Assembly (NCBI RefSeq): GCF_005144585.1
Contig: NZ_SSMQ01000047.1
Coordinates: 1-64,000, forward strand
Origin: Polyangium fumosum
GTDB taxonomy: Bacteria; Myxococcota_A; Polyangia; Polyangiales; Polyangiaceae
Direction: 5' to 3'
Length of the DNA stretch: 64,000 nucleotides
The number at the start of each line of letters is the position of its first letter. Positions within the stretch are counted from its first letter, which is position 1. The notes beneath the pieces are model-generated. The model saw nothing but the letters and a program-made list of their open reading frames with translations. It did no database searches and was not told where the DNA came from. This document shows positions 31,912-56,206 of this stretch, in pieces. The position numbers and the translations under genes are program-made.

Positions 31912-31995
31912 GCGAAGATGGCGGAATTGGCAGACGCGCTGGATTCAGGTTCCAGTGCCTTAACCGGCGTGGGGGTTCAAGTCCCCCTCTTCGCA
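31912..31995 (+). tRNA. tRNA-Leu (anticodon CAG)
   Basis: An 84-nt class II tRNA. The acceptor stem GCGAAGA pairs with TCTTCGC; the D arm, anticodon loop TTCAGGT, long variable arm and T arm GGGGGTTCAAGTCCCCC are all present. The 3' CCA is not encoded. The gene remains intact because the left copy of the 17-bp attachment repeat restores its 3' end. Confidence 0.97.
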
Positions 31996-34900
31996 CTTCT
32001 TAAGATCATCTCGCACCGGGCTGATCCTTCCCACCCCCTCCAACCCGACGGCGCCGGCAAGTTCCAGCGGGTTCGAGGGGGTTTCGCTTTCCATGGCCGC
32101 GTCAAAGGCTGCGTTGATGCGGTCGACCGTGGCCTGCACGAACGGCGTCACCATCCTGGCCGCGATCTCGCGCTCTTCCGGCGTGTGCTTCGACATCGTC
32201 TCCTCCTCCTTCTCGCCCTCGTCGGGCAGCTCCGGGGCGTCTCGCTGGATCCCCCCCGGGTGAACCTTTTCGCTTCCCACCCCCGCAGGCGGCAAGACTG
32301 AACGGACGGACCGTCCGTCCGGGGCCGGCGTGTGCGCCGGACCGCTGGACGGGTGCGCCGTGGGGATGGCAAACATGTCGGGGGCGCTGGCGAACATGTC
32401 CGGGCTCCAGCAGCCCTTCGGGCTGTAGGCGCTCGCCGGTGGCACCATCCGAACGAACGCCCCGTCCTCAGTGTAGAGCGGCCCGTCTGCGCGGTCCCAC
32501 GCGTATGCGCTCATCGCACCCGCTTCGCTGACGAATGCCGCATGCAAGTCAGCGTCGTCCTCGTGCTGCCACTCGTCGCAGACGAGACCCGAGGCGTGGC
32601 GAGCGCCGCAGCAGATCGCCACCGGCGGCCGCTCTTCATGGAAGACGAGGCCGCCCGGGTGGGGCCCCTCGGCGGCGCGCTCGCCCCGCTCGACCGTGAG
32701 GTTTCGCGGGTACATTTCCAGCAACTCGGGGCCGCGCTCCGTCTTGACGACCACCGCCACCAAACGGAGGTCCTCGCCGGGGCGCGCATACGTGGTGTCC
32801 CACTTGACGCGGCCGACGGCTCCCGCGTTTTGGCCTCGCACGATGCGCACCCACGTCCCGAGCACGAACCGCTCCGTAAGCTCGCTCCCGCTGGGCTGCT
32901 CCCCCTCGGTCTCGCGTTCGCCACGCGCCCTGGGATCCGCCGCCGGTTTGTCGGCGCCCGGTGCCGCTCCGGTGGGTTGGGCCGCAAACTGGTCCGGGTA
33001 CCACTCGGTCCACGGCCTGTCGACGTCCCACCGATCGGCCGGATTGACGATCCACTCGTAGTCACCCTGCGCGTGCGTGTCGCCGGTCGTCGTCGCCCAG
33101 GCGACCCTAACGCCGTCCGGCCGCCGTGCCCCGTGCGGCTCCTCCCCGTCGCAGCGTCCGTTGATGAACGCCTCGCGGTCACAGACGAGGCCCGAGGCGT
33201 GGCGCGCGCCGCAGCGCTGAACAGGTGTGCCGCTGCTCTCCTGCTCAGGATCGCGGCTCGCCCGCTCGGGCGCGCTCGTCTCCTGGCCCGTCTCGGTCGG
33301 CACCCAGGTGACCCCGCTGTAATGGCACGAGCGTGAGGGTTCTACGTCCGGAGCGTGTTCGGCCAACCCCTGAACGGACGGCTCCCCGTGCTTGTCCTTC
33401 TCGCCCTCCTCTACCTCCGAGGCGCGCAGGAGCTGCCAGTCGTCGTCCCCGAACACCTCGGCGTAGAGCCCCTCGCCGCAGTGGATGCAGTCGAAATACG
33501 TGCCCGCGAACACTTCGCCGTCTGGCAGGTCGGCCAGCCGCTCACACGACGGACAGACGTTCCACGCCGTCACATCATCCTTGACAGATGCAACGTTCTC
33601 TGCATTCGCCTCTGGCTGCACGCCTCCGGCGTTGCCGGCTTGGTCGTCTCCGCCGCGCACCTCGGTCGCCTGCGGCCAGCGGCCGTGCCTTCCGGGAACG
33701 GGCGCGTTCGGCTCGGCGAGGTACGCCGTCAAGTCGTCGTCTTCGCGCCACAGCGCACCTTCCGCGCGCCACCATACGAGCCGACCGAGCACACCGTCGC
33801 CAGCATGCGGGCGCGCGACACGCTCGTGGCCCGCTTGTTCGCCGCAGGTGTAGCCAAGGCTGGAGGCGTGCCGTGCGCCGCAACGTCCCCGCTCCGCGCG
33901 GCTCCTCCCGTCCTGCGCGCTCGAAGCGACCGCCACCGCGCCGAACATGCCCGGCGCCCACGTCTGGCTGCCGTCGCCCGACGTCCCCTGTTCTCCTTCG
34001 ACTGCGTTCGCCTGGACCCTCCAGACGGGCCCCCTGGCGCCATCCGCCCATGAGCGGAAGAGCGCCCCCGTCTCCACGTCCCACAAGACCGCCGCGAAGC
34101 CGGCGTACGCCCGATGGTCTCCTTCCTGGTGCTCCGCCAGGACACACGCGAGACCTGAGGCGTGCCGCGCGCCGCATACACGCTGCCCCTCGCCGCTCGG
34201 TTCACCTTTTTCGCGGTCGCCGGCTTGGTCGTGCCCGCCCGACGCACCGAAGCGCTTGGCGAGCACAGCCCGCTCCTTCTCGTTGAGGCTTGCCACCATC
34301 GCCTCCGCCTGGCGTCGCAGTGAACCGCCTTGGCGCGCAGGTCGCTGCGGCTCACGTGCGGCCATGGCTTCGACCTTGGCCCACAGCTCGGCGATCGAGG
34401 CACGTGGGGCCGCCTCGCCGCTCGGTGCACTTTCGGGTTCGCCGGAGGACGCTCGCTCCACGTCATCACGCCGCGCCCTCTCGCTCTCGTCCCCGTCCTC
34501 CGACGTGCGCACAAGTTGCTCGCTGTCGTCCTCCCCTTGCCATCCGAACGCCCAACCGTTCTCCGCTAGCGCCTCGTGATCTCGGTCCTCGTGCGGCTCT
34601 CGTTCGCACGTGATGCCGCTCTCCTGGTGAACTGCGCCGCAGAGCGCGCCCAGTTTGTCTTGCTCAAACTGCCCTGGGGCCCAGAGGCGCGCGCCTGCGG
34701 GCGCTCGGCCTTGGTCGAGCGCTGCGGGCGACCAGAAGATCGGCCGGCCGTCGTACTTGCGCCGCAGCTCGTCGTTGTCGCCCGCCCACATCAGCAGCGG
34801 CCCCATACCGTACGCGCCCACATGCATCCCCGTCGTGTGCGGCGGCTCGTGGCACCTGAGGCCCGAGGCATGCTTCGCACGGCACACCATCTGCGGCTGA

Positions 34901-36693
34901 ATAAGCTCGCCCTCCTCCGCCTGGGCCGCGTCGCGCTGCTCCGCGCGCCGTTCGTTGTCGACCACGAGCCGCAGCGTCGGCCGCTCGTCGGCGCCGGCCT
35001 CATCCACCCAGCCGTTGTAACTCGTGAGGCGCGCGCGCCACCCACCATGCTCATCTTGAGCCCACAGCGCGCCGCGCGTGTGCTTCCACCGCACACGCAA
35101 GCGCACGACCGGCCCCGCCGTCGTCGCCTCGTGTTCGACATGCTCAGCTTCGAGATCGCAGACGAGCCCCGAGACGTGCCGCGCGCCGCATCGCGCGTCC
35201 TCGGTCGCTTGCCGCTCTTGGGCGCGCCTCGCTACGCGCCGAACCGCGCCGAGCATCGCCACGTCCTCCGGAAAGCGCACCACGTTCGAGCCTGCGCGCT
35301 CAACGTCCGCGTCGAGCTTCGCCGTGCGCTTCGGCGGCAGGTTCTCCTCCGGCACGGGGTCTCCTTCGAGCGCCCGGTCGGTCCGCTTCCATGGATGTCT
35401 GCATTCCGGCGCATCGCCCCACAGCACACGCAGACCGCCGGGGAGCGTCGCGCCGTGTAGACCCGCGGGCCCGTGCTCGGTGCAGACCAACCCTTCCCGC
35501 TCGCTCTCGGCGCCGCAGCCTCGTGCCGCGCTCGACGCGCTCACCGTCGCCGTCTGCGGCACGACCCACGACCAGCCCGCGGGCGCGCGCTCGCCCGCTG
35601 CTTCCCACGCGACAGGATCACCAGCCACGAGCCCCGCCACTTCCTCGAGCTCCGTGCGAACGAGAGAGGCCGTCGCCGTCTCCGACGCATCCGGCCAGGC
35701 CCTCACGCGCCGCTCCACGAGGCCCGCGGCAAGCGCGCGGCCTAGCGCGGTGGGGTCGGTCGTGTTCGCGGGATGGCGCGCAAGCTCCGCGCCGCATCTC
35801 TCGCACACGGCGTAGCGCGAGACGTGCCCGCACCACGGGCAGCTTCGTTCGCCGTCGCGCGCCTCGCTCTCGGCGAGCTCGGCCGCGCGCACGACCGCCA
35901 CGAGCCCCGCGCGCGCCACCTCGCGCGTCATCTCGCGACGCTCCGGCGTCGTATGGTCCCAGTGCGAGCAGTGATGGCCCGCGCCCATGCCCTGCTCCAC
36001 CGACGCCGCTTCGCTGATCTCCTCCGCACGCTCGTGCATCGCGATCGCCATCCGCTCCAGCGCTCCATCGGCGCGCGCGTCGAGCACGAAGCGCGCGAGC
36101 AGTCGCGCCCACGACCCACGCGCGCCCGGCGAGCGTCGCAGCACCCTCCGGAGCACGTCCTCGGCCTCGCGTCCCCCGCTCGGCACCTCTTTCAGCTCGT
36201 GGGCCCCACGACGCTCGGTTTGCCGGTGGTCCGGATGAACCGCTGCGCTCTTCTTGGACACGTCGTCCAGCGCGCCCGCGGCCCCCGTCACGCTTCCGCA
36301 TTCCCCGCACGCAAGTACGCTCGCGGCGCGATCGCCGCACCGCCACCCCGCCAAGACCGGGCGTAGCGAGCCCCCGCAGTCGCACGCAAGCGCCACGTCG
36401 ACAGCTTCCTCTGACTCCGGCCGCTCGCACGCCGCCTCGCACACCGCGCAATACCCCCACGCACGGTGGTCTTCGCGCGGCGCCGCCTCGCACACCATCG
36501 GCCGCCCTCGATCACATGCGGCCTCCTCGCTCCCCGCCATCGTCCAATGGTTACTCGCGCCATAAACCCCCGACTCCGGCGCCAGCGGACAGGCGTCCCA
36601 CACCCCGAGCACCCAAAATACCCACTGCGCCACAAACCGCTGGATCACGCCGCAAACCTCGCCGAGCGGTCCGCAGCTTTCACGCTCTTCCAT
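31960..36693 (-). CDS. Giant protein with eight C-x3-H zinc modules and extra zinc ribbons
   Basis: This frame encodes 1,577 aa from an ATG at 36693 that shares a base with the upstream stop (TAATG) and follows GAGGAAC. A module with consensus CGARHASGLVCD plus a later His occurs near residues 391 (degenerate), 500, 602, 681, 836, 935, 1159 and 1360. Each is followed by a Trp-rich strand pair. Separate zinc ribbons lie near 107-140 (CDCGG, CGECG), 290 (CPWCG, CERCG) and 1045 (CPSCE, CIHCG), and a KOW-like GTWVRIVRGQNAGAVGRV near 1260. Single modules of this kind occur in actinobacterial phages. The last residues after CEEGD (LNPHAG) are antisense tRNA sequence; the native C terminus is on the far side of the element. 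An internal ATG at 32196 with a strong ribosome site could start a separate short product. Function unknown. Confidence 0.8.
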   Translation of the reverse strand: MEERESCGPLGEVCGVIQRFVAQWVFWVLGVWDACPLAPESGVYGASNHWTMAGSEEAACDRGRPMVCEAAPREDHRAWGYCAVCEAACERPESEEAVDVALACDCGGSLRPVLAGWRCGDRAASVLACGECGSVTGAAGALDDVSKKSAAVHPDHRQTERRGAHELKEVPSGGREAEDVLRRVLRRSPGARGSWARLLARFVLDARADGALERMAIAMHERAEEISEAASVEQGMGAGHHCSHWDHTTPERREMTREVARAGLVAVVRAAELAESEARDGERSCPWCGHVSRYAVCERCGAELARHPANTTDPTALGRALAAGLVERRVRAWPDASETATASLVRTELEEVAGLVAGDPVAWEAAGERAPAGWSWVVPQTATVSASSAARGCGAESEREGLVCTEHGPAGLHGATLPGGLRVLWGDAPECRHPWKRTDRALEGDPVPEENLPPKRTAKLDADVERAGSNVVRFPEDVAMLGAVRRVARRAQERQATEDARCGARHVSGLVCDLEAEHVEHEATTAGPVVRLRVRWKHTRGALWAQDEHGGWRARLTSYNGWVDEAGADERPTLRLVVDNERRAEQRDAAQAEEGELIQPQMVCRAKHASGLRCHEPPHTTGMHVGAYGMGPLLMWAGDNDELRRKYDGRPIFWSPAALDQGRAPAGARLWAPGQFEQDKLGALCGAVHQESGITCEREPHEDRDHEALAENGWAFGWQGEDDSEQLVRTSEDGDESERARRDDVERASSGEPESAPSGEAAPRASIAELWAKVEAMAAREPQRPARQGGSLRRQAEAMVASLNEKERAVLAKRFGASGGHDQAGDREKGEPSGEGQRVCGARHASGLACVLAEHQEGDHRAYAGFAAVLWDVETGALFRSWADGARGPVWRVQANAVEGEQGTSGDGSQTWAPGMFGAVAVASSAQDGRSRAERGRCGARHASSLGYTCGEQAGHERVARPHAGDGVLGRLVWWRAEGALWREDDDLTAYLAEPNAPVPGRHGRWPQATEVRGGDDQAGNAGGVQPEANAENVASVKDDVTAWNVCPSCERLADLPDGEVFAGTYFDCIHCGEGLYAEVFGDDDWQLLRASEVEEGEKDKHGEPSVQGLAEHAPDVEPSRSCHYSGVTWVPTETGQETSAPERASRDPEQESSGTPVQRCGARHASGLVCDREAFINGRCDGEEPHGARRPDGVRVAWATTTGDTHAQGDYEWIVNPADRWDVDRPWTEWYPDQFAAQPTGAAPGADKPAADPRARGERETEGEQPSGSELTERFVLGTWVRIVRGQNAGAVGRVKWDTTYARPGEDLRLVAVVVKTERGPELLEMYPRNLTVERGERAAEGPHPGGLVFHEERPPVAICCGARHASGLVCDEWQHEDDADLHAAFVSEAGAMSAYAWDRADGPLYTEDGAFVRMVPPASAYSPKGCWSPDMFASAPDMFAIPTAHPSSGPAHTPAPDGRSVRSVLPPAGVGSEKVHPGGIQRDAPELPDEGEKEEETMSKHTPEEREIAARMVTPFVQATVDRINAAFDAAMESETPSNPLELAGAVGLEGVGRISPVRDDLKKCEEGDLNPHAG
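31980..31996 (+). repeat. attL core (17-bp direct repeat, tRNA-Leu 3' end)
   Basis: AGTCCCCCTCTTCGCAC lies at the 3' end of tRNA-Leu and recurs exactly at 56190-56206. A tyrosine integrase gene lies inside the bounded segment, so these are the attachment cores. Confidence 0.95.
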
Positions 36694-37029: not shown

Positions 37030-37476
37030 CTAACCGGTCGGCACCTGTCCACCCATTTTGCTTGACGTGGAATTGTTTTTGGTGTGCGCGCGGCGCCTAC
37101 CTGGTCGCGGGTTTTTCGTGGCGCTCTCGGGTTCGGCGTCGAGTAGTTCGCGCCAGCCGGCGTTTGTCAGGCGCCCGTCGCGAAGAAGCAGCGCGCGGGC
37201 CGCGCGATACCTCCGCTCGACGTCGCGCACCCGCCTTCGACCCGGCAGCGCCACCCAGCGCACGAGCCTGTAGGGCGCCCCAAGGTTGTCTAGCTCCTTG
37301 CCCCACGTATCCCCGAGGTCCGCGATCCGCCGGTATTGCAGCCGCTGCTGCTTGCTGAGCGGGAGCCGCACAAGGGGATTTGCCCTGCGCCACTCCACCG
37401 CCCGGTAGTACGGTCGATCCACACGCTCCCTCTGGCCCCCGTGGTTTACCTTTTTGGCCTCCGCCGCACCTGCCAT
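37030..37476 (-). CDS. Basic protein, candidate element regulator
   Basis: This 148-aa, strongly basic protein starts at an ATG at 37476. Helical segments (LSKQQRLQYRRIADLGDTWG, RRVRDVERRYRAARALLLRD, LTNAGWRELLDAE) could include a DNA-binding unit, but no clear helix-turn-helix is visible. Its position, first leftward gene next to a palindrome-bearing divergent promoter, is where phage repressors usually lie. One operator half-site (37441-37450) is inside its coding region. The regulator role is inference. Confidence 0.6.
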   Translation of the reverse strand: MAGAAEAKKVNHGGQRERVDRPYYRAVEWRRANPLVRLPLSKQQRLQYRRIADLGDTWGKELDNLGAPYRLVRWVALPGRRRVRDVERRYRAARALLLRDGRLTNAGWRELLDAEPESATKNPRPGRRRAHTKNNSTSSKMGGQVPTG

Positions 37477-37646: not shown

Positions 37647-38117
37647 ATGGCTTCGCTTCCCGCCCTCCCCCCCGCCGCGGCCCCGGCGGCATCCACCCTG
37701 GTGCCCGCGCCGCTCATGGCCGCCGAGATGCGGATTCAACATCTCGGCCAGAACAACTCGTACCTGAACCGGCAGCTCCAATTGCTCAAGACCGAGATGC
37801 CCAACAGCTTCCCGGCGCGGCTGGCCAGCTCGACGATCCCGGCGCTCGGCCTCGTCGCTGCGGACGCGTCCATCGGCGACGGTGAGGGCTACACGGCGCG
37901 CGCCGTCGGGACCGTCGCTTTTGGCGCCGCGGCCGGGTTCTGTCACCTGTTCGGCTGGCACACCGCGACCAACGTGGCGCTCGATGCCGCGAGCGGTACG
38001 GCGCTCGTCCTCGCCGCCGAGGGCCTCAAGGGCAGCATCATCGCGCGGCGCTTCGCGGAGAACGCGCCCGAGGCGAGCGGCCCCCAGCCCCCGAAGCCGG
38101 CCGCGCGCGCCGCGTGA
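37647..38117 (+). CDS. Membrane protein, first gene of the rightward block
   Basis: This 156-aa protein starts at an ATG after CGGAGAG. A Pro/Ala-rich N terminus and a short amphipathic segment (MRIQHLGQNNSYLNRQLQLL) precede hydrophobic helices at about residues 62-75, 85-105 and 110-125 (VGTVAFGAAAGFCHLFGW, LDAASGTALVLAAEGLKGS). The tail is Pro-rich. No family is recognised. Small multi-helix membrane proteins next to capsid genes are typical of viruses with an internal membrane, which is how I read it here, cautiously. Confidence 0.65.
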   Translation: MASLPALPPAAAPAASTLVPAPLMAAEMRIQHLGQNNSYLNRQLQLLKTEMPNSFPARLASSTIPALGLVAADASIGDGEGYTARAVGTVAFGAAAGFCHLFGWHTATNVALDAASGTALVLAAEGLKGSIIARRFAENAPEASGPQPPKPAARAA

Positions 38118-38151
38118 CCCGTTGTCGTCTCGTCGCTCGGAGCTGTTCGCT

Positions 38152-38529
38152 ATGCGCCCCTCCCACCGCTCGGCTTTTTTTGCGTGCGCCGTAACAACCC
38201 TCGGCCTCGCCTCGTCGCTACTTTGGCTCGGTGGCGTGCTGCCCTGGTGGGCGGGGCTCTTCGGACTCCTGTGCGACGCGGCGGACGGCGAGATCGCGCG
38301 GCGCTCTGGTGGAGTGACCACCTTTGGCGCTCTGTACGACTGGAGCGCTGATTTGGTGCTCTGCGCGCTTGGTTGGGCGCATCTTGGCGGCACCTTCTCG
38401 CCCGCCTCGCTCGTCTTGCTCGCGTTCCTTGTGCCCGTCCAGGTTGCCTTGCACCTCAAGCAAGTGCATTTCAGCGGGCGCACCGGGGTTTTTGTCGCCG
38501 GCATCTTGCTGGAGGTTTTCGGGCCGTGA
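38152..38529 (+). CDS. Minimal CDP-alcohol phosphatidyltransferase-like membrane protein
   Basis: This 125-aa integral membrane protein contains the full signature of the CDP-alcohol phosphatidyltransferase family, D-x2-D-G-x2-A-R-x8-G-x3-D-x3-D: Asp42, Asp45, Gly46, Ala49, Arg50, Gly59, Asp63 and Asp67 (DAADGEIAR, then GALYDWSAD). The aspartates bind metal and the CDP-linked substrate in enzymes that make PS, PG or PI. About four to five hydrophobic helices surround the motif. Family members usually have six helices and ~180-220 residues, so this is a compact version. The ATG at 38152 is the first plausible start; the stop overlaps the next gene. A role in altering lipids for a viral membrane is inferred. 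Confidence 0.8.
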   Translation: MRPSHRSAFFACAVTTLGLASSLLWLGGVLPWWAGLFGLLCDAADGEIARRSGGVTTFGALYDWSADLVLCALGWAHLGGTFSPASLVLLAFLVPVQVALHLKQVHFSGRTGVFVAGILLEVFGP

Positions 38530-39083
38530 GCGATTCCACGAGCCCCGATTTCGACGTCCTGGGCGCTTCGCGCTCTCTTTCAACCCTCGCCAAGGGTGCG
38601 CCGGTTGACCGACTGATGCGCGAAGTGCGGGAGGCTGTGGAGGCAGGCTACATCCACGGCAGCCGGGCCGGCGATCAGGCGATCTCCTTCAACGCGCACC
38701 TGATTCAGCACAACACCGACCTTCTCGCGGCGAATATCCAGCTTTCAAAGCAGTATTCGGAGCTTTCCGCGAAGCACGAGGCGACCGTCCGGATCGAGGC
38801 GGAGCGGAGCGTCGCTCTCAAGCAGATCGACGCGGAGATAGCGCGCAACAAGGAGCTTTTCTCGACCCTAACCGGGCTCTGGAACGATCCGCGTATCGCG
38901 CTACTGGTGCAGCGGTTTATTGGCACCGCTGGGCTTGCGCCTGAGGTGCGCACCAAAGCCAAGGTCGTGATTCTTGCGCTCAGCGGCCCCGAGGGCGCCG
39001 CCGCGCGTGCGGAGATCCGCAAGCTCTGTCCGGATGCCCCGCATTGGGACGCCCTCGTTAGCTTCCTTTCCACCGTGGAGTGA
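38526..39083 (+). CDS. Coiled-coil protein, possible virion component
   Basis: This 185-aa protein starts at a GTG that overlaps the stop of the CDP-alcohol transferase gene. It is helical, with a heptad region from about residue 55 to 125 (FNAHLIQHNTDLLAANIQLS, EATVRIEAERSVALKQIDAE) and a compact C-terminal part with RTKAKVVILALSGPEGAAAR. No family is recognised. Six bases separate its stop from the capsid candidate start, implying co-expression. It could be a scaffold, spike or anchor. Confidence 0.65.
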   Translation: MSDSTSPDFDVLGASRSLSTLAKGAPVDRLMREVREAVEAGYIHGSRAGDQAISFNAHLIQHNTDLLAANIQLSKQYSELSAKHEATVRIEAERSVALKQIDAEIARNKELFSTLTGLWNDPRIALLVQRFIGTAGLAPEVRTKAKVVILALSGPEGAAARAEIRKLCPDAPHWDALVSFLSTVE

Positions 39084-39088
39084 CCCCA

Positions 39089-39958
39089 ATGTCTTCTTTC
39101 GGCTTCAATCTCGAAGAGTACGTACGTGACATGTTTGGCACCGGCCTCAACGAGGTGGGCGCCGCCCTCGACGAGGCGATCCAGCTCGATCCCGAGCTGG
39201 CGAACATCATCTTCAACGATGGCGACGTCGGCGCCGCGATCGCGGCGCGTGCGCCGGGCGTCCCCGCGAACCAGATCCAGGCCCTCGTTTCCTCGTTGAA
39301 GACCACCAACGACGTCAATTCGCGCTTCGCGCTCACGGCGGCGATGCTCACGCGCGGCCCGGACAAGACGAAGCCGAACTCGGCGGCGACCCTCTACGCC
39401 ACGAACGCGGGCGTCGAATGTGTGGCCTATCCCGACCTACCCGCGCGAAGCTACGACCTCATGCCCCGCGCCCACGGGGTGCTGGACGACAAGGCGATCA
39501 GCTTCGACAACGACACGATCCTCGTGCGCGTGATGGCGCACGAGGCGTGCACCGTCCGCAACTTCGTGCTCGTCGGCGGCGGCGGCTTCGAGACGGATCG
39601 CCTGTCGCCGTTCCGCAAGGATACGTCGTTCGTGTCGCTGCAACCGGACGTGCCGTGGGATGAGACCCCGTGGGTTTCGCTGCGCTACGCGCGGCCGAAA
39701 GAGAAGACCTCTTTCCTTTTCCGCGTGTACCTCGACGAGCCCACCGGCAGCACGTCCGTCTTCCCGGGCCTCGTCGTCCACTACCAGGAAGCCGGCTGCA
39801 TGCCGATGTGGCGCAAGTGGAACCAGGCGCAGCCCGCCGACCCCGCCACGATCGCAAATGCGCTCGGTCAGTACGCGCAGCAGCGCACCCGGCTGGTTTT
39901 GCCCCAGGCCAAGGCCTTCAACCCGCTGAGCAACGTGCTCAACAACAAGCTGCGCTAA
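39089..39958 (+). CDS. Candidate major capsid protein
   Basis: This 289-aa protein has a helical N-terminal third, then a beta-rich middle from about residue 100 to 235 (DNDTILVRVMAHEACTVRNF, SFLFRVYLDEPTGSTSVFPG), and a short helical C terminus. The strand pattern fits a jelly-roll-like virion protein; no HK97-like features are present. It is the only gene in the block followed at once by a strong terminator (39970-40018), common for the most abundantly made virion protein. Its size is in the range of capsid proteins of membrane-containing tailless phages. This is a structural inference, not a family match. Confidence 0.5.
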   Translation: MSSFGFNLEEYVRDMFGTGLNEVGAALDEAIQLDPELANIIFNDGDVGAAIAARAPGVPANQIQALVSSLKTTNDVNSRFALTAAMLTRGPDKTKPNSAATLYATNAGVECVAYPDLPARSYDLMPRAHGVLDDKAISFDNDTILVRVMAHEACTVRNFVLVGGGGFETDRLSPFRKDTSFVSLQPDVPWDETPWVSLRYARPKEKTSFLFRVYLDEPTGSTSVFPGLVVHYQEAGCMPMWRKWNQAQPADPATIANALGQYAQQRTRLVLPQAKAFNPLSNVLNNKLR

Positions 39959-39969
39959 CGTCTCTCTTC

Positions 39970-40025: not shown

Positions 40026-40067
40026 CGTTTGGCTGTTCGTTCTGCCCTTTTTTTGCAGAGGTGGCCC

Positions 40068-43164: not shown

Positions 43165-43172
43165 GGTTTCAC

Positions 43173-45591: not shown

Positions 45592-45631
45592 CTTTGGCGG
45601 CCGCTCGTCGGCCACGAAAGGAACACGCACC

Positions 45632-47653: not shown

Positions 47654-47994
47654 GCGCGCGCGTCTTCGTGGCGCTCTGCGCGCTCCTCGTCTGCGAGGTG
47701 TCTGCCTACCTGACGATCGCGCTCCTTGCGGTGCGCGGCGTGCTCGACGGGTCGCAGCTCTTCGCCCTGCTCGGCGTGGTGGTCGGCCTCTCGCGGCGCG
47801 TCTGGCTGCGCGCGCTCGACCTGCGCGAGCCACCCGGCCCGCCGAGCAGCGTTCGCGCGCGCCGGTCGCCGTCGAGCGCCGATGCGGCGCCGCTTGCTCG
47901 CGTCATCGCCTGGCGAGGCTGGACCTACCTACCGGGCCCGCTGCTGCTGCTCCTCTGCCTGCTGACGCACAAGGTCCCCGGGCGGGCGGTGTGA
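47650..47994 (+). CDS. Small membrane protein with two helices
   Basis: This 114-aa protein has an N-terminal helix pair (VFVALCALLVCEVSAYLTIA, FALLGVVVGLSRRVWL) and a C-terminal helix (LPGPLLLLLCLLTHKVPG) separated by a basic, disordered loop. Holins and virion membrane proteins can look like this. ATGA overlap with the preceding gene places it in the same unit. Holin is a possibility, given the lysin two genes upstream. Confidence 0.6.
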   Translation: MSARVFVALCALLVCEVSAYLTIALLAVRGVLDGSQLFALLGVVVGLSRRVWLRALDLREPPGPPSSVRARRSPSSADAAPLARVIAWRGWTYLPGPLLLLLCLLTHKVPGRAV

Positions 47995-47996
47995 CC

Positions 47997-49022: not shown

Positions 49023-49090
49023 GGTTCCCACCTGATACCGATTTCCCGCAAGTCTGTTCTTCAACCTCACAACCCCCAAGGACACCCGTC

Positions 49091-49519
49091 ATGAACACGA
49101 AGCAACCCTCGACCCCGAACGTGAACACCGACCCGACGGCAAAGCCCCGCCGCGGCCGCAAGCCGAAGCAGGCCGACGCGAAGGCGCCGTCGGCACCGCA
49201 GGCCAACGGCGACGAGGTGTTCGAGCCCATCGCCGACGTTACCGACGAGACCGCGCCGCGGCGCTGCGTCAAGTTGACGCTCTTCGTGCCGCCCGAGGTC
49301 GCCGCGCGGCTGCGCGTCGAGCAGTTCTTGCGCCCGCCCACCGAGCTCTGCGCGCTCACGCTGTCGTCCACCGCGTTTCAGGTCCTCATGGAGGGCCTCG
49401 ACCATTCCGACGCGGTGCGCGTCGAGCGGCGCCAGGGCGCCGCCGAGCACCGAGTCAAGCGCGTGCTCCTTCAAGACGCGTTCCACCAGCTCGCAAACGT
49501 CGTCTCGGCTGGGATCTGA
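49091..49519 (+). CDS. Small basic protein with AT-hook-like N terminus
   Basis: This 142-aa protein has an AT-hook-like stretch, KPRRGRKPKQ, and a folded C-terminal half (CVKLTLFVPPEVAARLRVEQ, RVKRVLLQDAFHQLANVVS). The first strand plus helix recalls ribbon-helix-helix regulators, but the match is weak. It is the last rightward gene and is followed by a terminator at 49577. Confidence 0.55.
   Translation: MNTKQPSTPNVNTDPTAKPRRGRKPKQADAKAPSAPQANGDEVFEPIADVTDETAPRRCVKLTLFVPPEVAARLRVEQFLRPPTELCALTLSSTAFQVLMEGLDHSDAVRVERRQGAAEHRVKRVLLQDAFHQLANVVSAGI

Positions 49520-50432: not shown

Positions 50433-50448
<16 letters not shown>
50152..50448 (-). CDS. ParB/Srx-like nuclease-domain protein
   Basis: This is a 98-aa protein from a GTG at 50448. 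The C-terminal half carries REGTHRLRAAKRLGLVPVLV, the G-x-HR-x2-A-x4-G motif of ParB/sulfiredoxin-fold domains, preceded by VRVNPPHGHFRADHLERVV, which corresponds to the strand-helix that usually comes before it. The domain is short and lacks the DNA-binding helix domain of true ParB. The start overlaps the end of the Ser-rich lipoprotein gene by 16 bases. A role in element DNA handling is inferred. Confidence 0.65.
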
Positions 50449-51089
<641 letters not shown>

Positions 51090-51091: not shown

Positions 51092-53047
51092 CTATTCTTC
51101 CACTTCCTGCGGCTCGTTCGCCGCCACAACCGGCACGATCTGCGCCGGAAGTTCCTTCGGGGCTCGCGCCCCATAGCCCTTGTAAAAACGCGTCCAGTTC
51201 GCGAGGACGCCCGCAAAAGCCCGCCGGCCCTTCTCGCGCGCCACGATCTTCGCGAGGGTTTCCAGCTCCTTTTGCGTGAGCTGCTCCCCGTCGCCCGCAA
51301 GCACCCGCTCTAGGCGCTTGCGCATCTCGCGCACAAACGGCGGCCGCTTCTCCCCTGCCATCAGCTTGACGAAACCCTGCAAGTCCACGCTTGAGCGCGT
51401 TTTCCAGCCGTTTCGCTTCGCGTTCTGGGCCCCGTAGTAGTGATCGGCGTACGCGCGCCGCCGCGATTCCTCGGCGTACGCCGTGACGGCCGGCGGGCGC
51501 TTGTGCGTGCGCGGATTCCAATCCGCTGCGGCCCGCTCCATCGACTCAAAGCCCGACGCGCCCTTCGAGCGGCTCTTCTGGACAATCTGCTTTCGCCGAT
51601 CCTCGCGCTCGGCGCGCGCACCGTCTTCCTCCGCCGTCGTCGGGCAGACGAGGTCCACGATCGTGCGCACCCTCGCGGGTTCGAGCGCGACGCGCGCGAG
51701 CTCTTCTTGGAGATCGACGTCCGGCGGATCGTCGTCCTCCTCGCCCGCACCTGGCGCGACTCCGGCAAAATTGAGCTCGCCCCGGCGTCCCGCCAGCACC
51801 ACACGCTCGCCGCCCGGCACGTAGCCTGCCGGAATTTGCAGCACCGGCGGGGCCATCGCCTCGCCCGGCGTGTGCAGATAGACCTCCGTGACCTCGAGGG
51901 CGTGGTGGCCCATCAGATCACGCACTTCCGTCAGCGGCCTTTGCCGGCTCTCCGCTGTGCCGAAGAAGTGCCGCAGCGCGTGCGTTACCAGCTCGTCGGC
52001 ATACGGGAGCCCCGCGCGCGTCGCGAGCGCTCGCAAAACCTCCGGCTTGACCAGATCGGCGTGGGTGCGCCACGCAGGGCCCGGTGAGCGGTGGGCGGGA
52101 AAGAGCGGGCCGTGTGGCGCAAACCGCCCAAATCGAGCAAGCACGGCTTGCTGTGCTCGGAGCAGTCGCTCCCCGGCGTCCGACAGGGGGATCGTCCGCG
52201 AGCGCTTGCTCTTCGGTAGACTCGGCGGCTCCATCGCGCCCGGGAAACGCGTTGGCCACTGATCCACCGCTTGGCGCCGGATCCGCAGCACAAACGGCGT
52301 CTTGGCGCCCGGCTGAATGTCGTGGTTCCCGAGCCCCGACCCTTCGGCCTGTCGTAGCCCAAAAGCCGCGATCACAGCGCACCGCGCCGCGAGATCCGCA
52401 TAACGCGGGATCGCCAGCTCGCTAAGATCCCGGCGCTTCGCCTCCGTCAGGATCGCGAACAGCGCATCCTCGTTGTGCGGGATCGTGCGCTGCTTTTCCG
52501 TTGGCCGCTCCGGCCGCCACCCTCGCCACGGCAGTTCGGCCAAACGCCCATCTTCGATGGCCATATTCGCGGCCGCTTGCAAAACCGCGTAGATGTTCCC
52601 GATCGTGGTCTGCGCGAGTGGCTTTCGCTGTAGCTCCTTCTCCCACTTCGCAAGCTTCGACGCGTCGAGTTCTACGGCTCTACAATCCCGAAACTCCGGG
52701 AACACGTGCAGCCGCCAATACGACCGAGCAGCCTTGCCCCAATGGTCGTCCACCGTCGCGATGTAGGTTTCCCACATCTCCCGCAAGGAGAGCGGCCCCT
52801 TGGCCGCGTTGCGCACGGCCACGAGCGTGTGCGGATCCGAGATCGCGCCCGCCTTGTAGTCGTGCCTGAGCTGAATCACGCGGGTGTATCTCGCGATCAG
52901 ATCCTCCGGATCGGTGCCGTAGATCGAATCACGCTCGCCCGTCACCGGATCGCGGTATTGCTTGCGAAATCGGTTGGGCCCGACCTGTTGCAGCGTAACT
53001 CCCTGTATTGTTACGGTTTTGCCCTTCACCTTGATAACCTTCGGCAT
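51092..53047 (-). CDS. int: Tyrosine recombinase (integrase) with long C-terminal extension
   Basis: This 651-aa enzyme should integrate and excise the element at tRNA-Leu. The catalytic set is complete: Arg in AAFGLRQAEGSGL, Lys in LPKSKRSRTIPL, HALRH, MGHH and the nucleophile Tyr390 in VTEVYLHTP. An N-terminal arm domain (VTLQQVGPNRFRKQYRDP) and a core-binding helix bundle precede it. About 260 residues follow the Tyr, far more than in most phage integrases. They are charged and unassigned, with RERERR-like and helical stretches. The ATG at 53047 is chosen because upstream sequence is low-complexity. It lies 3 kb from attR. Confidence 0.94.
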   Translation of the reverse strand: MPKVIKVKGKTVTIQGVTLQQVGPNRFRKQYRDPVTGERDSIYGTDPEDLIARYTRVIQLRHDYKAGAISDPHTLVAVRNAAKGPLSLREMWETYIATVDDHWGKAARSYWRLHVFPEFRDCRAVELDASKLAKWEKELQRKPLAQTTIGNIYAVLQAAANMAIEDGRLAELPWRGWRPERPTEKQRTIPHNEDALFAILTEAKRRDLSELAIPRYADLAARCAVIAAFGLRQAEGSGLGNHDIQPGAKTPFVLRIRRQAVDQWPTRFPGAMEPPSLPKSKRSRTIPLSDAGERLLRAQQAVLARFGRFAPHGPLFPAHRSPGPAWRTHADLVKPEVLRALATRAGLPYADELVTHALRHFFGTAESRQRPLTEVRDLMGHHALEVTEVYLHTPGEAMAPPVLQIPAGYVPGGERVVLAGRRGELNFAGVAPGAGEEDDDPPDVDLQEELARVALEPARVRTIVDLVCPTTAEEDGARAEREDRRKQIVQKSRSKGASGFESMERAAADWNPRTHKRPPAVTAYAEESRRRAYADHYYGAQNAKRNGWKTRSSVDLQGFVKLMAGEKRPPFVREMRKRLERVLAGDGEQLTQKELETLAKIVAREKGRRAFAGVLANWTRFYKGYGARAPKELPAQIVPVVAANEPQEVEE

Positions 53048-53148
53048 GCGCTCGCCGATACCAACCGGCGCGCGCGCTTGCGTTTGTCCCAGCGTCCACA
53101 CGCGGGCGCGCGGTCCCCAACCCGCCACGCGCCCGCCCCTTCGAGTCG

Positions 53149-53769
53149 CTACCGGCGCCCGCCGCTCGCGCGCGCCGACTGCGCCGCGTTGAGCTCTGCG
53201 AGCGCTGCGCGCGCCGCCTCCGCTTGTCCTTCACGCTGAGCTGCTCGGCTCCGCGTGTGGTCGCCCGTCGACGCCGGCCCGGCGTCGCTCTGGCCACGCG
53301 TCGCCTTCGCTGGCTTCGTGGGCCATCTCGGTTCTTCGGGCGCGCGCCCGCGTGGCTTTGCCCGCCGTTCGGTCACGCCCGAGGCCACGGGCATGGTGAC
53401 GACGATCCCGCCACCCGTCTCGCGCTCCTCGCCCGTGAAGTCGAGCACGAGCACCCGATCGGCGTAGGTCTCCGGATACCGTGCCTCAACAAGCCGCGCC
53501 GTCTCGACCCCGTCTTCGCGGCACCATTCGAGGACTTCCTTGCCCGTCACCGGCACGTAGCCACCCGGCTCGCGCCGGTGCCGATGCCTGTCGTCGCAGA
53601 GCCGGCACGCCGCCCGCATCTCGCCGTGGCGTGTTGCCCCTCGACCCGGTTCGCAGGTGCGGCCGTGCAGGCACGCATGGTGCGTGCGGACGATTTCTGC
53701 GTAGACCCCCGTAACCACGAACGCCCGGAGGCACCGGGAGCACGTCACGTATTCGCCCGAGAACTTCAT
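53149..53769 (-). CDS. Cys-rich zinc-binding protein
   Basis: This 206-aa protein has an N-terminal zinc-binding unit (CSRCLRAFVV, HHACLHGRTC, CRLCDDRHRH), then a small mixed domain with EVLEWCREDGVETARLVEAR and VLVLDFTGEE, and a basic, disordered tail. It overlaps the adenine methyltransferase stop by ATGA, so it is made together with it. HNH-like features are incomplete. Function unknown. Confidence 0.6.
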   Translation of the reverse strand: MKFSGEYVTCSRCLRAFVVTGVYAEIVRTHHACLHGRTCEPGRGATRHGEMRAACRLCDDRHRHRREPGGYVPVTGKEVLEWCREDGVETARLVEARYPETYADRVLVLDFTGEERETGGGIVVTMPVASGVTERRAKPRGRAPEEPRWPTKPAKATRGQSDAGPASTGDHTRSRAAQREGQAEAARAALAELNAAQSARASGGRR

Positions 53770-54518
53770 GGGCGGACCTCCAGGAAGCCCCAGCGGCCCG
53801 CGTGCGCTGCGCCGCGCACGCGCCAGGCGTAGGCTTTGAGGTCGGTCCCGTCCTGCTCGTACACGATGCGGCCGTCCGGCTCCTGCCAGGCGCGCAGGAA
53901 CGCCGGCCGCATCGCGAGGTCGTACCGCCCGCCTGCCGGATCACGCAGCAGTCGCGCGCGCTGCGTGATCTTGGCCTTGCGGGATCCGCGATTCGCCTCG
54001 AACGCCGTGGAGGGCAGGAGCAGCGCGACCTGTTCCGCGTCCATCGCCATCGCGGCCAGCTCGAACGCCTCCCATTGGGGAAATGGTGGGTTCGAGATCG
54101 CGAGCCCCGGCATCGGGCCGAGGTCGAGCTCTTGCACCAGCTTCCGCACCCGCCATTGCACGTCGGCGTCCGCTACGTCGCCCACGAACACCCCGTGATA
54201 CGCGCCGGTCGCCAGCGCCTCCGCCGCTCGCGCCTCCGAGAACTCGATCCCGATCCCTCGGATGCCCCAGGCCGCATGGAGCACGGCCCCGATCGCCCCA
54301 CGGCCGGCGCCGAGGTCGATCCATATGCGCGGGCGCCCGAGTCGCGCGAGCAGCGCCGTCACGGCGCAGCGCTCCGGGTGGGGCTGATTTAGCCGCGTCG
54401 GCGTCTCGTAGAAGTCGAGCGGCAGGCGCGTGGGCTTGGCCGGCTCGCGCTTTCTGCCCATCGGAACCCGCGACGGCTCGCTGACGCCGCACATGCCGAT
54501 CGGTTTGGTGCCGCTCAT
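53766..54518 (-). CDS. DNA N6-adenine methyltransferase-like protein
   Basis: This 250-aa protein has an SAM-binding motif IDLGAGRGAIG and a catalytic motif NPPF (AISNPPFPQWEAF), preceded by LDFYETP, a segment common in phage Dam-like enzymes. It therefore probably methylates adenine, though RNA or protein targets cannot be excluded. A C-terminal strand-rich part may contact DNA. It overlaps both neighbours by ATGA, in one unit with the cytosine methyltransferase. The lack of a restriction gene suggests self-protection or epigenetic control. Confidence 0.82.
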   Translation of the reverse strand: MSGTKPIGMCGVSEPSRVPMGRKREPAKPTRLPLDFYETPTRLNQPHPERCAVTALLARLGRPRIWIDLGAGRGAIGAVLHAAWGIRGIGIEFSEARAAEALATGAYHGVFVGDVADADVQWRVRKLVQELDLGPMPGLAISNPPFPQWEAFELAAMAMDAEQVALLLPSTAFEANRGSRKAKITQRARLLRDPAGGRYDLAMRPAFLRAWQEPDGRIVYEQDGTDLKAYAWRVRGAAHAGRWGFLEVRP

Positions 54519-55684
54519 TGCCCACCCCCACGCCGGATTGCTTCGAGCTCCATGACGCGGCGCCCCCAGAGCTCGGCGACGTGCGGAACCACCGCGTTAC
54601 CCAGCGCTTTGAGCCTTGCAACGCGCAGCCGACGCGCCGCCCGCCCTTCCGGGCTCAGGACCGTGCGCGGGGGCTCCCACGTTTGCGGCGCCTCTCCGGG
54701 ACCGGCGGGCCATCTGTCCACCCGGGCGGGCAGCCCATCAACGTCTCGACCCACGCCGGATTCAGCACTCCGCCCGCATTCGGCTGTCTCACCGCTGCAT
54801 CCACCAGCGTCGTCCCCGCGTGTCGCGTCTCCGTGCTGTACCCGGCGGCGCCCGACGCCTTCGCGTCGCCGCATGTCGGTGTCGGCCACAGCTTCACGGC
54901 GATCCCGAGGGGCGTTCCGCAGCCGTTGCCGTTGATTCCCTTCGCTCGCAGCTTCGCCTGTCGCTCCTTGAAGGTCTCCACCGCCTCGCGCTCGTTCGCG
55001 CACGAGGCGTCCGGCGTCGGCCACAGCTTCACCGCCTGCGCCAGCGGCGGCGAGCCCTGCGCTCGCTTCCCTCGCGACGGACCGCGCGCGTCCCGCGTCA
55101 TCGGTGTAGGCCAGAATGAAGAGTCGCTCTCGTCGATGGGGAGCGCCGACGTCACTTGCCCGAACACACGACCATTCCGCATCGTACCCCGCTTCGGCCA
55201 GGTCACCGAGGACCCGATCGACTCCGCGAACAAGCAGAGCTGCGACGTTTTCCACGAGCACGTAGCGCGGTCGTAAAAGGCAAATGATTCTGCACTGTTC
55301 GCGCCAGAGCCCTGAACGTTCTCCCTCGATTCCGGCTCCATTCCCGGCATAGCTGATATCCTGGCAGGGAAATCCCCCGCAAATGAGGTCGACTTCCTCC
55401 AGCTCCGCCCCAACGGCGCGGACGTCCTCGTAGCGCTTCGCCCGCGGCCAATGCCGTGCGAGCACACCTCGGCACCACGCGTCTTGCTCGACCTGCCACG
55501 CCACCGGCCCGAGCCCGGCCCATTCCAAGCCGAGTTCCAGCAGGCCAATGCCCGAAAACAGCGAACCCATCGTGAGCGCGCTGCGCTCTTGCGTTTCCTC
55601 GCACCGCAACCCACGAGAACGCCTCGAACCATGTCCGGGCGTCCTCGATGTGTTGGCGGCGCGGCGCATGGCCGCGCCGCTCAT
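54515..55684 (-). CDS. C5-cytosine DNA methyltransferase
   Basis: This 389-aa Dcm-type enzyme has motif I LFSGIGLLELGLEWAGLGP, motif IV with catalytic Cys in GGFPCQDIS, motif VI VENVAALL, motif VIII APHRRERLFILAY and motifs IX-X in RLKALGNAVVPHVAELWGRR. The ~38 residues before LFSG are unusual; the ATG at 55684 overlaps the preceding stop (ATGA), but a start at 55570 is also possible. The target-recognition part (AYTDDAG to VDRWP) is Arg/Gly-rich and overlaps a second coding-like frame. It is typical of temperate-phage solitary methyltransferases. Confidence 0.92.
   Translation of the reverse strand: MSGAAMRRAANTSRTPGHGSRRSRGLRCEETQERSALTMGSLFSGIGLLELGLEWAGLGPVAWQVEQDAWCRGVLARHWPRAKRYEDVRAVGAELEEVDLICGGFPCQDISYAGNGAGIEGERSGLWREQCRIICLLRPRYVLVENVAALLVRGVDRVLGDLAEAGYDAEWSCVRASDVGAPHRRERLFILAYTDDAGRARSVAREASAGLAAAGAGGEAVADAGRLVRERARGGGDLQGATGEAASEGNQRQRLRNAPRDRREAVADTDMRRREGVGRRRVQHGDATRGDDAGGCSGETAECGRSAESGVGRDVDGLPARVDRWPAGPGEAPQTWEPPRTVLSPEGRAARRLRVARLKALGNAVVPHVAELWGRRVMELEAIRRGGGQ
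54655..55350 (-). CDS. Overlapping +1-frame protein with phage 'WPTP' domain
   Basis: Entirely inside the cytosine methyltransferase gene, in the +1 frame, a 231-aa product can be read from an ATG at 55350. Its sequence matches a family I know from phages, usually annotated as methyltransferase-associated: SWKTSQLCLF, TWPKRGTMRNGRVF, FWPTP twice more as LWPTP and NPAWVETLMGCPPGWTD. It is too well formed to be a chance shadow of a neighbouring frame. It may be a genuinely overprinted gene, or a relic of the ancestral recognition domain. No clear ribosome site is seen. Confidence 0.5.
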   Translation of the reverse strand: MPGMEPESRENVQGSGANSAESFAFYDRATCSWKTSQLCLFAESIGSSVTWPKRGTMRNGRVFGQVTSALPIDESDSSFWPTPMTRDARGPSRGKRAQGSPPLAQAVKLWPTPDASCANEREAVETFKERQAKLRAKGINGNGCGTPLGIAVKLWPTPTCGDAKASGAAGYSTETRHAGTTLVDAAVRQPNAGGVLNPAWVETLMGCPPGWTDGPPVPERRRKRGSPRARS

Positions 55685-56189
55685 TGCGCACCTTGCCCGA
55701 ACAGCTCGTCCGCGAGGGCTTCCGCTGCCTCGCAGCGCTCACGCCATTCCTCCGGCGTGCTGACCTTTGTCGCAATCGCGTACCAGACCGCTCGCGTGAC
55801 GGCGCTTGGTTCCCAGGGCGCGCACCGCTTATCCGCGTCGAGTAGCGCGAAGATCACCTCCGACGCCGCTTGCAGCTCCCTCGCTGGCGCACGGAGACAA
55901 GGCGGCCCCTTCGCCGCCAACCGGATCCCCTGCCTGACCTCCTCGACGCTCCCACCGTGGAGCCGACTTGCGTACAAGGTAAGTAGGTTCGGGAGAGATC
56001 CAGACTCGTACCGCTCCGCCCACACCTTCAACCACGTCAGGAGCGGATCGCTTACCTGAACGTCTGGCGCACCCCCCTCGTCGTGACGCACCGCGTGCCG
56101 TTCGAGGCTCCGGCACTCGTTTGGCACTTGCTCTTTGATAATGTTTCGACTACTTCGTGTTTCCTCGCTGTTTGCGGGGACGTGCGAAG
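55681..56189 (-). CDS. C-terminal part of the giant element protein, cut off by integration
   Basis: This frame (about 169 codons inside the element) enters the right attachment core in phase with the giant zinc-module gene at the left core. In a circular element they would join. The sequence has a helical body (LLTWLKVWAERYESGSLPNL, EWRERCEAAEALADELFG). Its stop overlaps the cytosine methyltransferase start (ATGA), which supports it as a real gene end. In the prophage state its own start would have to be an internal codon; none is convincing. A TTG at 56223 lies beyond attR. Confidence 0.6.
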
Positions 56190-56206
56190 AGTCCCCCTCT
56201 TCGCAC
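56190..56206 (+). repeat. attR core (17-bp direct repeat)
   Basis: Exact copy of attL, AGTCCCCCTCTTCGCAC. The element arm just before it supplies TGCGAAG, so TGCGAAGA (56183-56190) and TCTTCGCA (56198-56205) form a perfect 8-bp hairpin with a 7-base loop, mimicking the tRNA acceptor stem. Confidence 0.95.

What the first reader, a model, noticed from the sequence alone, without database searches (positions are those of the whole stretch)
31980..56206. Possible undescribed tailless, lipid-containing temperate virus (or satellite) in tRNA-Leu
The element has clean attL/attR cores, an integrase, phage-type methyltransferases and a rightward block of coupled genes with lysin, capsid-like and several membrane proteins. 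I find no terminase, portal, tail, relaxase or P-loop packaging ATPase in any sizeable frame. That combination does not fit a tailed phage, an ICE or a classical tailless phage that carries an FtsK/HerA-like ATPase.
Basis: partly seen in the sequence, partly recalled or inferred. Interest (0 to 1): 0.85.

Follow-up and report, generated by a model that had tools for sequence, protein, structure and literature searches.

The report
Possible tailless proviruses in soil myxobacteria
A 24-kb mobile element sitting in a tRNA gene of a soil myxobacterium belongs to a small family that carries a conserved block of virus-particle-like genes but no recognisable DNA-packaging motor, so it may be an unusual kind of tailless virus that lives in bacterial chromosomes.

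Summary
The element is real. A 17-bp core at tRNA-Leu(CAG) bounds it (31980-31996, 56190-56206), and 5 of 5 other genomes of the genus have the empty site. It carries a tyrosine integrase, a Dcm-type methylase and a rightward block (37647-49519). The block is not a one-off: 7 elements in 5 genomes of two Polyangiaceae genera share it (g07, g08 and lysin by homology, other genes partly by position), and in the 3 close copies its 7 genes have dN/dS 0.03-0.32. Pfam and PHROGs scans showed no terminase, portal, relaxase or packaging ATPase; the only tail-type match is the lysin domain of a relative to a baseplate-hub family. g07 has no relative found in phages, plasmids, IMG/VR or PDB; two low-confidence models are beta sandwiches with weak jelly-roll matches (best Z 5.3, SPV1). 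A tailless, perhaps membrane-containing temperate virus is the best reading (0.47), unproven; helper-dependent satellite and envelope-active element remain live. FLiP and the Odin group already lack the ATPase. Side result: the Dcm gene is dual-coding; its +1-frame protein is conserved beyond all 300 synonymous shuffles in 12 of 12 genes tested.

The parts
31912..31996 (+). tRNA-Leu(CAG), integration target; its 3' end is the attL core
   Evidence: ARAGORN; same tRNA is the target of the So ce26 element A
31980..31996 (+). attL core, 17 bp
   Evidence: exact repeat with 56190-56206; empty sites in 5 of 5 other genomes of the genus
56190..56206 (+). attR core, 17 bp
31960..36693 (-). g01: 1577-codon acidic open frame with repeated CGARHxSGLVC motifs (zinc-binding by appearance only); its stop lies inside the tRNA
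   Evidence: best family matches E 0.32 (Pfam), 0.038 (PHROGs), 0.063 (NCBIfam HGG_STG)
37030..37476 (-). g03: small basic protein, divergent from the block, in the same place in the two So ce26 elements
   Evidence: phmmer 5.1e-27 and 2e-29
37647..38117 (+). g04: first gene of the block; holds the place of a small hydrophobic protein of the other elements (position only)
   Evidence: no homology shown for the window copy and no segment above the hydrophobicity cut
38152..38529 (+). g05: 125-aa CDP-alcohol phosphatidyltransferase-like protein with the DG..AR...G...D...D motif (motif recalled); not called at this place in the other six elements
   Evidence: Pfam PF01066 E 1.4e-7
38526..39083 (+). 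g06: coiled-coil-like protein
   Evidence: phmmer 4.7e-4 to element A; same place in the other elements
39089..39958 (+). g07: putative single jelly-roll major capsid protein (289 aa): helical N-terminus, beta domain, C-terminal tail
   Evidence: alignment; hhalign 91.8% to the second group; low-confidence models; VIA
40299..41876 (+). g08: domain with conserved Cys, His and Asp (papain/transglutaminase-like by my reading) and a C-terminal GCPG[TS]CA motif shared with So ce26
   Evidence: hhalign 98.9%
41942..42436 (+). g09: beta-rich protein in the place of a 156-199 aa protein of the other elements
   Evidence: blastp 0.010, hhalign 17.9% E 2.9e-4
42433..43164 (+). g10: basic protein, likely relative of a gene in the G003 element
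   Evidence: hhalign 69.5% E 5.4e-6
43161..43604 (+). g11: Zn-ribbon-like N-terminus (weak matches); small gene in the same place in So ce26 A and B
43615..45591 (+). g12: lysin with SLT-like and M15-type peptidase-like domains
   Evidence: PHROG_32486 E 4.7e-22; 42-43% identical to So ce26 A and B; SLT match of a relative E 0.0024; tailed-phage hits over residues 307-459
45632..47653 (+). g13: repeat-containing protein with a C-terminal hydrophobic segment
   Evidence: (D2 repeat)
47650..47994 (+). g14: membrane protein by hydrophobicity
47991..49022 (+). g15: basic protein
49091..49519 (+). g16: last called gene of the rightward block
51092..53101 (-). tyrosine integrase, 669 aa
   Evidence: relative of the So ce26 A integrase, phmmer 1.4e-42
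53766..54518 (-). methyltransferase-like protein (weak matches)
54515..55684 (-). Dcm-type DNA cytosine methyltransferase (main frame)
   Evidence: PF00145 E 3.1e-37, PHROG_363 E 6.4e-69
54655..55632 (-). overlapping +1-frame open frame, PHROG_1008 type: dual coding with Dcm
   Evidence: PHROG_1008 E 1.9e-33

Best explanation
The element is a provirus of an undescribed lineage of temperate, tailless, perhaps membrane-containing viruses of Polyangiaceae. Shown: it sits as a site-specific insertion in the 3' end of tRNA-Leu(CAG) with its own tyrosine integrase, and its rightward block belongs to a module shared by seven elements, under purifying selection in the three close copies. Inferred: g07 is a single jelly-roll major capsid protein; hydrophobic proteins such as g13 and g14 sit in a membrane under the shell; g12 opens the cell wall at entry or exit; g05 adjusts lipids; DNA enters particles without a virus-coded P-loop motor, as proposed for FLiP and the Odin group, or with a motor too divergent to recognise; host enzymes replicate the excised circle, while one relative brings Prim-Pol and VapE.
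For: Exact att repeat and empty sites in 5 of 5 other genomes of the genus. Same tRNA and core length in So ce26 element A. Module in 7 elements of 5 genomes, with profile matches between the two groups for g07 (91.8%, E 9.5e-8), g08 (98.9%) and the protein after the lysin in the relatives (99.0%). dN/dS 0.03-0.32 in 21 of 21 comparisons among L115, L116 and L118. tRNA-Arg genes beside three other elements, Pfam integrases in two, a 15-bp att repeat in one. Lysin. Hydrophobic segments. Beta-domain model: of 985 chains aligned the best is the SPV1 capsid protein, Z 5.3; PRD1 P3 at 4.5 and 4.3. No terminase, portal or conjugation family in the scans.
Against: Both models of g07 are poor (mean pLDDT 44 and 53); every Z is under 8. 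The lists also hold a toxin-complex subunit (4.7), PHM (4.5), nucleoplasmin and TNF-like folds, and for the full protein nucleoplasmin (4.9) and lambda- and T1-type tail-tip proteins (4.7) as high as enterovirus capsids. BFVD: nothing below E 0.001. The lysin domain of L115 matches a PHROG baseplate-hub (tail) family, E 3.3e-11. No sequence link to FLiP, PM2, P23-77 or PRD1. No relative found in IMG/VR (pattern-based) or phages. 13-24 kb would be large for an ATPase-free tailless virus. No replication gene recognised in the window element. The lysin and g08 of the window have no clear membrane segment outside the enzyme domain. The P-loop scan is not proof of absence: it also missed the VapE protein of L118.
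Confidence: 0.47

Rival explanations
1. A phage satellite: the element excises on its own, replicates (one member with Prim-Pol and VapE) and either re-shapes a helper's particle with its structural genes or is packaged by a helper's terminase.
For: Size of about 13-24 kb, tRNA sites, tyrosine integrase, Prim-Pol plus VapE in L118, no own packaging motor recognised.
Against: No match below E 0.04 to a PHROG head-and-packaging family in the module proteins scanned, and the module includes a large lysin and hydrophobic proteins. Helper terminases or cos signals were not searched for in the hosts.
Confidence: 0.2
2. A non-viral integrative element whose block makes a cell-envelope machine (wall hydrolases, papain-like enzyme, membrane anchors, a beta-sandwich protein), for example a release or antagonism device of a predatory bacterium.
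For: Lysin and papain/transglutaminase-like domains and hydrophobic proteins; no capsid proved; no relative found in viral contigs.
Against: Site-specific integration at several tRNA genes with different neighbouring genes is usual for proviruses; no secretion or conjugation family in the scans.
Confidence: 0.2
3. A decayed or heavily diverged tailed prophage whose terminase and tail genes were lost or not recognised.
For: The lysin of L115 matches a baseplate-hub family (PHROG_196, E 3.3e-11); the lysin's peptidase domain occurs in tailed phages; Dcm genes of this type are common in phages; tail-tip proteins tie with capsids.
Against: Seven elements share the module, three close copies under purifying selection, and no terminase or portal family appeared in the proteins scanned (not every gene of every element was scanned). 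Random decay would not leave the same set.
Confidence: 0.06

Closest known systems
Finnlakeviridae (Flavobacterium phage FLiP)
   Same: Tailless, internal membrane, virion lytic enzyme, no packaging ATPase, genes in one direction (PMC7654751, read whole; gene table).
   Different: 9.2 kb ssDNA, virulent, rolling-circle Rep, double jelly roll; no sequence link. Here 24 kb, integrase, and a g07 beta domain of only about 120-150 residues.
Odin group of double-jelly-roll viruses
   Same: No detectable packaging ATPase (PMC5894146, passages).
   Different: Small genomes, DJR capsid, ParB and PD-(D/E)XK nucleases; not compared by sequence here.
Simuloviridae / Matsushitaviridae (SNJ1, P23-77)
   Same: Single jelly-roll capsid proteins, internal membrane, about 16-19 kb; Simuloviridae are temperate (PMC12642351, read whole; P23-77 gene table).
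   Different: Two major capsid proteins and a putative packaging ATPase; Simuloviridae proviruses are episomes of haloarchaea; no sequence link to P23-77.
Portogloboviridae (SPV1)
   Same: Best, but weak, structural match of the g07 beta domain (6oj0_A, Z 5.3, 108 residues, 3.8 A).
   Different: Archaeal virus; 3% identity over the match; the model is of low confidence.
Corticoviridae (PM2) and Tectiviridae (PRD1)
   Same: Tailless (recalled), many small structural genes, virion lysins; PRD1 P3 among the weak structural matches.
   Different: DJR capsid (recalled) and gene IX, annotated as packaging/terminase gene; no sequence link.

Membership tests
Integrative element with tyrosine recombinase at a tRNA gene | att repeat, integrase, empty site in relatives | tested here: met
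Caudoviricetes (tailed phage) | HK97-type capsid, portal, terminase, tail genes | tested here: not met
   no such family in Pfam or PHROGs scans of the window proteins or of 46 proteins (39 from five related elements, 7 from the window). One partial exception: the lysin of L115 matches baseplate-hub PHROG_196, E 3.3e-11
Integrative conjugative element | relaxase and mating-pair genes | tested here: not met
   no relaxase, coupling protein or secretion family; HUH motif scan negative
[quoted passage not shown]
   g07 beta domain looks single in low-confidence models; PRD1 P3 among weak matches; no sequence link
Bamfordvirae / Helvetiavirae | A32-like packaging ATPase | tested here: not met
   not recognised: no Pfam or PHROG hit, no P-loop in called genes of the window, A and B; the motif scan is fallible (it missed a VapE protein), and FLiP and Odin lack the gene too
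Finnlakeviridae | rolling-circle Rep / ssDNA genome | tested here: not met
   no Rep family found; what DNA would be packaged is unknown
Helvetiavirae (single jelly-roll, membrane viruses) | one or two single jelly-roll capsid proteins | tested here: inconclusive
Lipid-containing virus | membrane in the virion | not testable with these tools
   only hydrophobic segments and g05
Phage satellite (PICI, P4 type) | helper-dependent packaging | not testable with these tools
   Prim-Pol and VapE in one relative

The most novel reading that the evidence does not exclude
A new high-rank lineage of temperate, membrane-containing, tailless bacterial viruses built from a single jelly-roll capsid protein with no sequence relative in the collections searched, which loads 13-24 kb of DNA without a recognisable packaging ATPase.
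Probability: 0.32. Interest if true: 0.87.

Novelty: new variant of a known kind. Interest (0 to 1): 0.67.

Why it matters
If the block makes particles, provirus finders that look for terminase, portal or HK97 capsid genes miss a class of elements in large soil genomes, and genomes of 13-24 kb can be packaged without a recognisable motor, a question so far raised by FLiP and the Odin group. Named genes (g07, g08, g12) in sequenced hosts make it testable by induction and purification. Separately, the dual-coding Dcm gene suggests that a protein filed as 'DNA methyltransferase' (PHROG_1008) is an overprinted product of unknown function shared by phages of many hosts.

Tried and rejected
Capsid by sequence: g07 profiles against PDB chains gave two matches at E 2 and 2.5 to an SH2-bearing phosphatase and none; Pfam and PHROGs nothing; FLiP, PM2, P23-77 and PRD1 nothing by phmmer, or by hhalign for g07 and g09 against their capsid proteins. 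VIA lists are second looks at Foldseek matches of poor models; families absent from them are not excluded.

Wider relatives: g07 in IMG/VR, GTDB contigs (only So ce26, two loci), phages, plasmids (So ce26 copy only), and the 3-row profile in 377 phylum, 108 family and 183 order genomes (only the window's genome and So ce26). These misses are weak: the same 183 genomes held four more loci that this profile did not report and that came only through the g08 profile (8 of 183 genomes, 10 loci, 3 of them the starting set). Four of the other seven were fetched wide; the short loci L110, L111 and L112 showed no other module gene. The lysin found 61 IMG/VR loci, mostly over its peptidase domain; by tblastn none of the 61 carried another element gene except one weak integrase match, and the first, L017, is a tailed phage. 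Two lysin searches of the family gave no answer.

Profile comparison: the diagonal for coiled coil, small protein and g09 was weak (1.0%, 0.2%, 17.9%), and one off-diagonal pair (small protein against g08) reached 33.5%, so those places rest mainly on order. In the window g04 and g13 were not shown homologous to the genes in their places. No att repeat was found for L116 and L118 in the stretch held and no tRNA in B or L117.

Weak PHROG names that I did not use: head scaffolding (g06, E 0.076), internal virion proteins (g08 0.068, g12 frame 0.044), virion structural protein (g04 0.13), tail proteins (L115, 0.054 and 0.056).

Dcm test: 16 loci compared; 12 with both frames open were tested; dropped were phiBT1, Vash and Lymara (frames split) and ESSI2 (no Dcm-frame hit). 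In phiBT1 one short extra piece of the match lies in the third frame. In the +2-frame control R9.1 slightly exceeded all its shuffles (1.8 against 1.6 bits) and ABMM1 all but one. Openness alone is not significant for the GC-rich window gene (1053 of 20000 shuffles as open).

Literature: the searches made listed no paper that I recognised as describing the element or a dual-coding cytosine methylase of this type; of these, 38, 62, 112 and 131 returned nothing. PMC11855218 (abstract and passages) describes HNH endonucleases out of frame inside insertions in phage methylases: a different thing. The other papers were seen as listings only.

Full report
What is there. The window is part of contig C142 (99,108 bases) of a 13-Mb genome; the named genome found to carry the same family of elements is Sorangium cellulosum So ce26, of the same family of bacteria. 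The element is bounded by an exact 17-bp repeat, at the 3' end of tRNA-Leu(CAG) (31980-31996) and at 56190-56206. In all five other genomes held for the genus the left flank ends at the same tRNA and the right flank follows (in two the right-flank alignment begins 28 bases past the core), so the insertion is 24,210 bp. Its base composition is close to that of the flanks (69.5% G+C against 69.6% and 71.1%).

Gene layout. Gene calls (a home-made caller) give three blocks. Left, leftward: a 1577-codon acidic frame with repeated CGARHxSGLVC motifs, g02 and g03. Middle, rightward: g04-g16 (37647-49519). Right, leftward: g17-g23 with the integrase (51092-53101; Pfam E 7.6e-8; PHROG E 1.7e-23), a weakly matched methyltransferase and a Dcm (PF00145 E 3.1e-37).

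What the block encodes. g12 is a lysin: PHROG_32486 E 4.7e-22, an SLT match in a relative (E 0.0024) and peptidase-domain matches to tailed phages. g08 has a conserved Cys, His and Asp of papain/transglutaminase type (my reading, no family hit) and a C-terminal GCPG[TS]CA motif shared with the So ce26 copies. g05 is a short CDP-alcohol phosphatidyltransferase-like protein (PF01066 E 1.4e-7). By a 19-residue hydrophobicity cut of 1.6, four of the 13 block genes pass (g05, g08, g13, g14); the g08 segment lies within its enzyme-like domain, and the lysin's N-terminus (1.56) just fails. Relatives have further hydrophobic genes. g07 (289 aa) has no family.

What is absent. Pfam and PHROGs scans of the window proteins and of 46 proteins chosen from called genes (39 from So ce26 A and B, L115, L117 and L118, 7 from the window) showed no terminase, portal, capsid, relaxase or packaging-ATPase family; not every gene of every relative was scanned. 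The one tail-type match below E 0.001 is the lysin of L115 to a baseplate-hub family over its SLT region (PHROG_196, E 3.3e-11). A P-loop scan found none in the called genes of the window element and So ce26 A and B, and only a Cys-rich chance match in the called genes of L115-L118. That scan also missed the VapE-like protein of L118 (Pfam E 1.2e-70), so it is not proof of absence.

Relatives. g07 first found two loci in So ce26. Element A lies in the same tRNA-Leu(CAG) with its own 17-bp core and a related integrase (phmmer 1.4e-42). Element B looks decayed, with what I read as an integrase remnant and a split g08. Shared with the window: g03, g07 (28-31% identity), g08, g12 (42-43%), with weaker g06 and g09; g04 and g13 only by place. 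A profile of the g08 domain in 183 genomes of the order led to four more loci: two in G002 and one in G003 (both in the window's genus) and one in G088 (genus of So ce26). Each has a small protein, coiled coil, g07-like (209-223 aa), g08-like, g09-like, lysin and a g13-position protein in that order. hhalign between the two groups gives g07 91.8% (E 9.5e-8), g08 98.9%, the protein after the lysin 99.0% and g10 69.5%; small protein, coiled coil and g09 are weak. A seven-sequence g07 profile found these same seven loci in 5 of 317 genomes of the class. Three of the new loci lie by tRNA-Arg genes, two of them with Pfam integrases (L116, L118), and L115 has a 15-bp repeat of the tRNA end 12.9 kb away. 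L118 also carries Prim-Pol and VapE.

Selection. Among L115, L116 and L118, seven module genes in three pairings give dN/dS of 0.03 to 0.32 (21 of 21). The module is in use in these copies; the window, A and B are too far apart for this test.

Is g07 a capsid protein? Two AlphaFold jobs were available. The full window protein (3-row alignment) reached mean pLDDT 44; the beta domain of the So ce26 A copy reached 53, pTM 0.51, with eight or so strands. In the second look at PDB matches of the latter, 1 of 985 chains has Z of 5 or more: the SPV1 capsid protein (Z 5.3, 108 residues, 3.8 A). Next come a toxin-complex subunit (4.7), PHM (4.5) and PRD1 P3 (4.5, 4.3, 4.1), with nucleoplasmin and TNF-like folds. 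For the full protein the top is nucleoplasmin (4.9), with phage tail-tip proteins and an enterovirus capsid protein at 4.7. BFVD has no match below E 0.001. This fits a single jelly roll but does not establish it.

Comparison with known viruses. FLiP is tailless, contains a membrane and a virion lytic enzyme and has no packaging ATPase (PMC7654751, read whole); the Odin group also lacks it (PMC5894146, passages); Simuloviridae have two single jelly-roll proteins, a membrane and 16-19 kb genomes, and are temperate (PMC12642351, read whole). No called protein of the window element, So ce26 A or B matched FLiP, PM2, P23-77 or PRD1, nor did the g07 and g09 profiles match their capsid proteins. It may work like these viruses; it is not shown to be a member of any.

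How it probably works. Shown: site-specific insertion with an integrase, recurrence at several tRNA genes, a shared module under selection where testable. Inferred: a particle with a g07 shell, hydrophobic proteins in an inner membrane, g12 for wall passage, ATPase-free or unrecognised packaging, host replication. Rivals are a helper-dependent satellite, a non-virion envelope device and, least likely, a tailed-phage derivative.

Side result inside the element. The Dcm gene has a second open frame at +1 (54655-55632, minus). It matches PHROG_1008 (E 1.9e-33) while Dcm matches PHROG_363 (E 6.4e-69); it has no Pfam or NCBIfam family. tblastn finds it in 118 phage records, E down to 4e-27. In Paenibacillus phage Bloom both frames are annotated as DNA cytosine methyltransferase. 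In 15 phage loci fetched plus the window, the relative lies at +1 of the Dcm frame in all but ESSI2, which has no Dcm-frame hit; in phiBT1, Vash and Lymara the frames are split. In the 12 genes with both frames open, the +1 product scored higher against a profile of the other 11 than all 300 synonymous shuffles of its own gene (window 198 against 75 +- 12 bits, ABMM1 214 against 78 +- 13); the +2 frame did so only in R9.1, by 0.2 bit. Constraint on the Dcm protein alone does not explain this; dual coding does. The searches made found no paper on it (nearest PMC11855218). Its function is unknown; an anti-restriction or specificity role is a guess.

Noticed in passing
window 54515-55684 (-) and 54655-55632 (-): Dual-coding phage-type Dcm: the +1 frame encodes a PHROG_1008 protein conserved across phages of Acinetobacter, Paenibacillus, Synechococcus, Mycobacterium, Gordonia, Salmonella and others, beyond main-frame constraint in 12 of 12 genes tested. 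In the window, main-frame VADT/VADA stretches read as WPTP in the +1 frame.
   Followed up: yes
window 31912-31996: The tRNA-Leu allele differs in its variable and T arms from the allele printed for three other genomes of the genus (GGGGG..CCCCC instead of GGAGG..CCTCT), suggesting that the element supplied the 3' part of the tRNA.
   Followed up: partly
window 31960-36693 (-): 1577-codon acidic frame with repeated CGARHxSGLVC motifs, ending inside the tRNA; only weak family matches.
   Followed up: partly
window 45775-46681: Internal repeats in g13: a 215-nt unit twice (87% alike) and a 40-nt unit three times.
   Followed up: no
L118 4500-6580: Element in G002 with Prim-Pol and a VapE-like protein next to the same structural module.
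   Followed up: partly
L010 7973-18412: So ce26 element B looks decayed: an integrase-like remnant and g08 split in two frames; other module genes open.
   Followed up: partly
window 50433-51089 (-): Lipoprotein-like frame with long Ser and GMGG low-complexity runs; coding strand uncertain.
   Followed up: no
L009 4359-5036 and L009 3463-4362: Protein that may be a spike (my reading) and a hydrolase-like protein with an N-terminal hydrophobic segment at the end of the So ce26 A block; the latter also in B.
   Followed up: no
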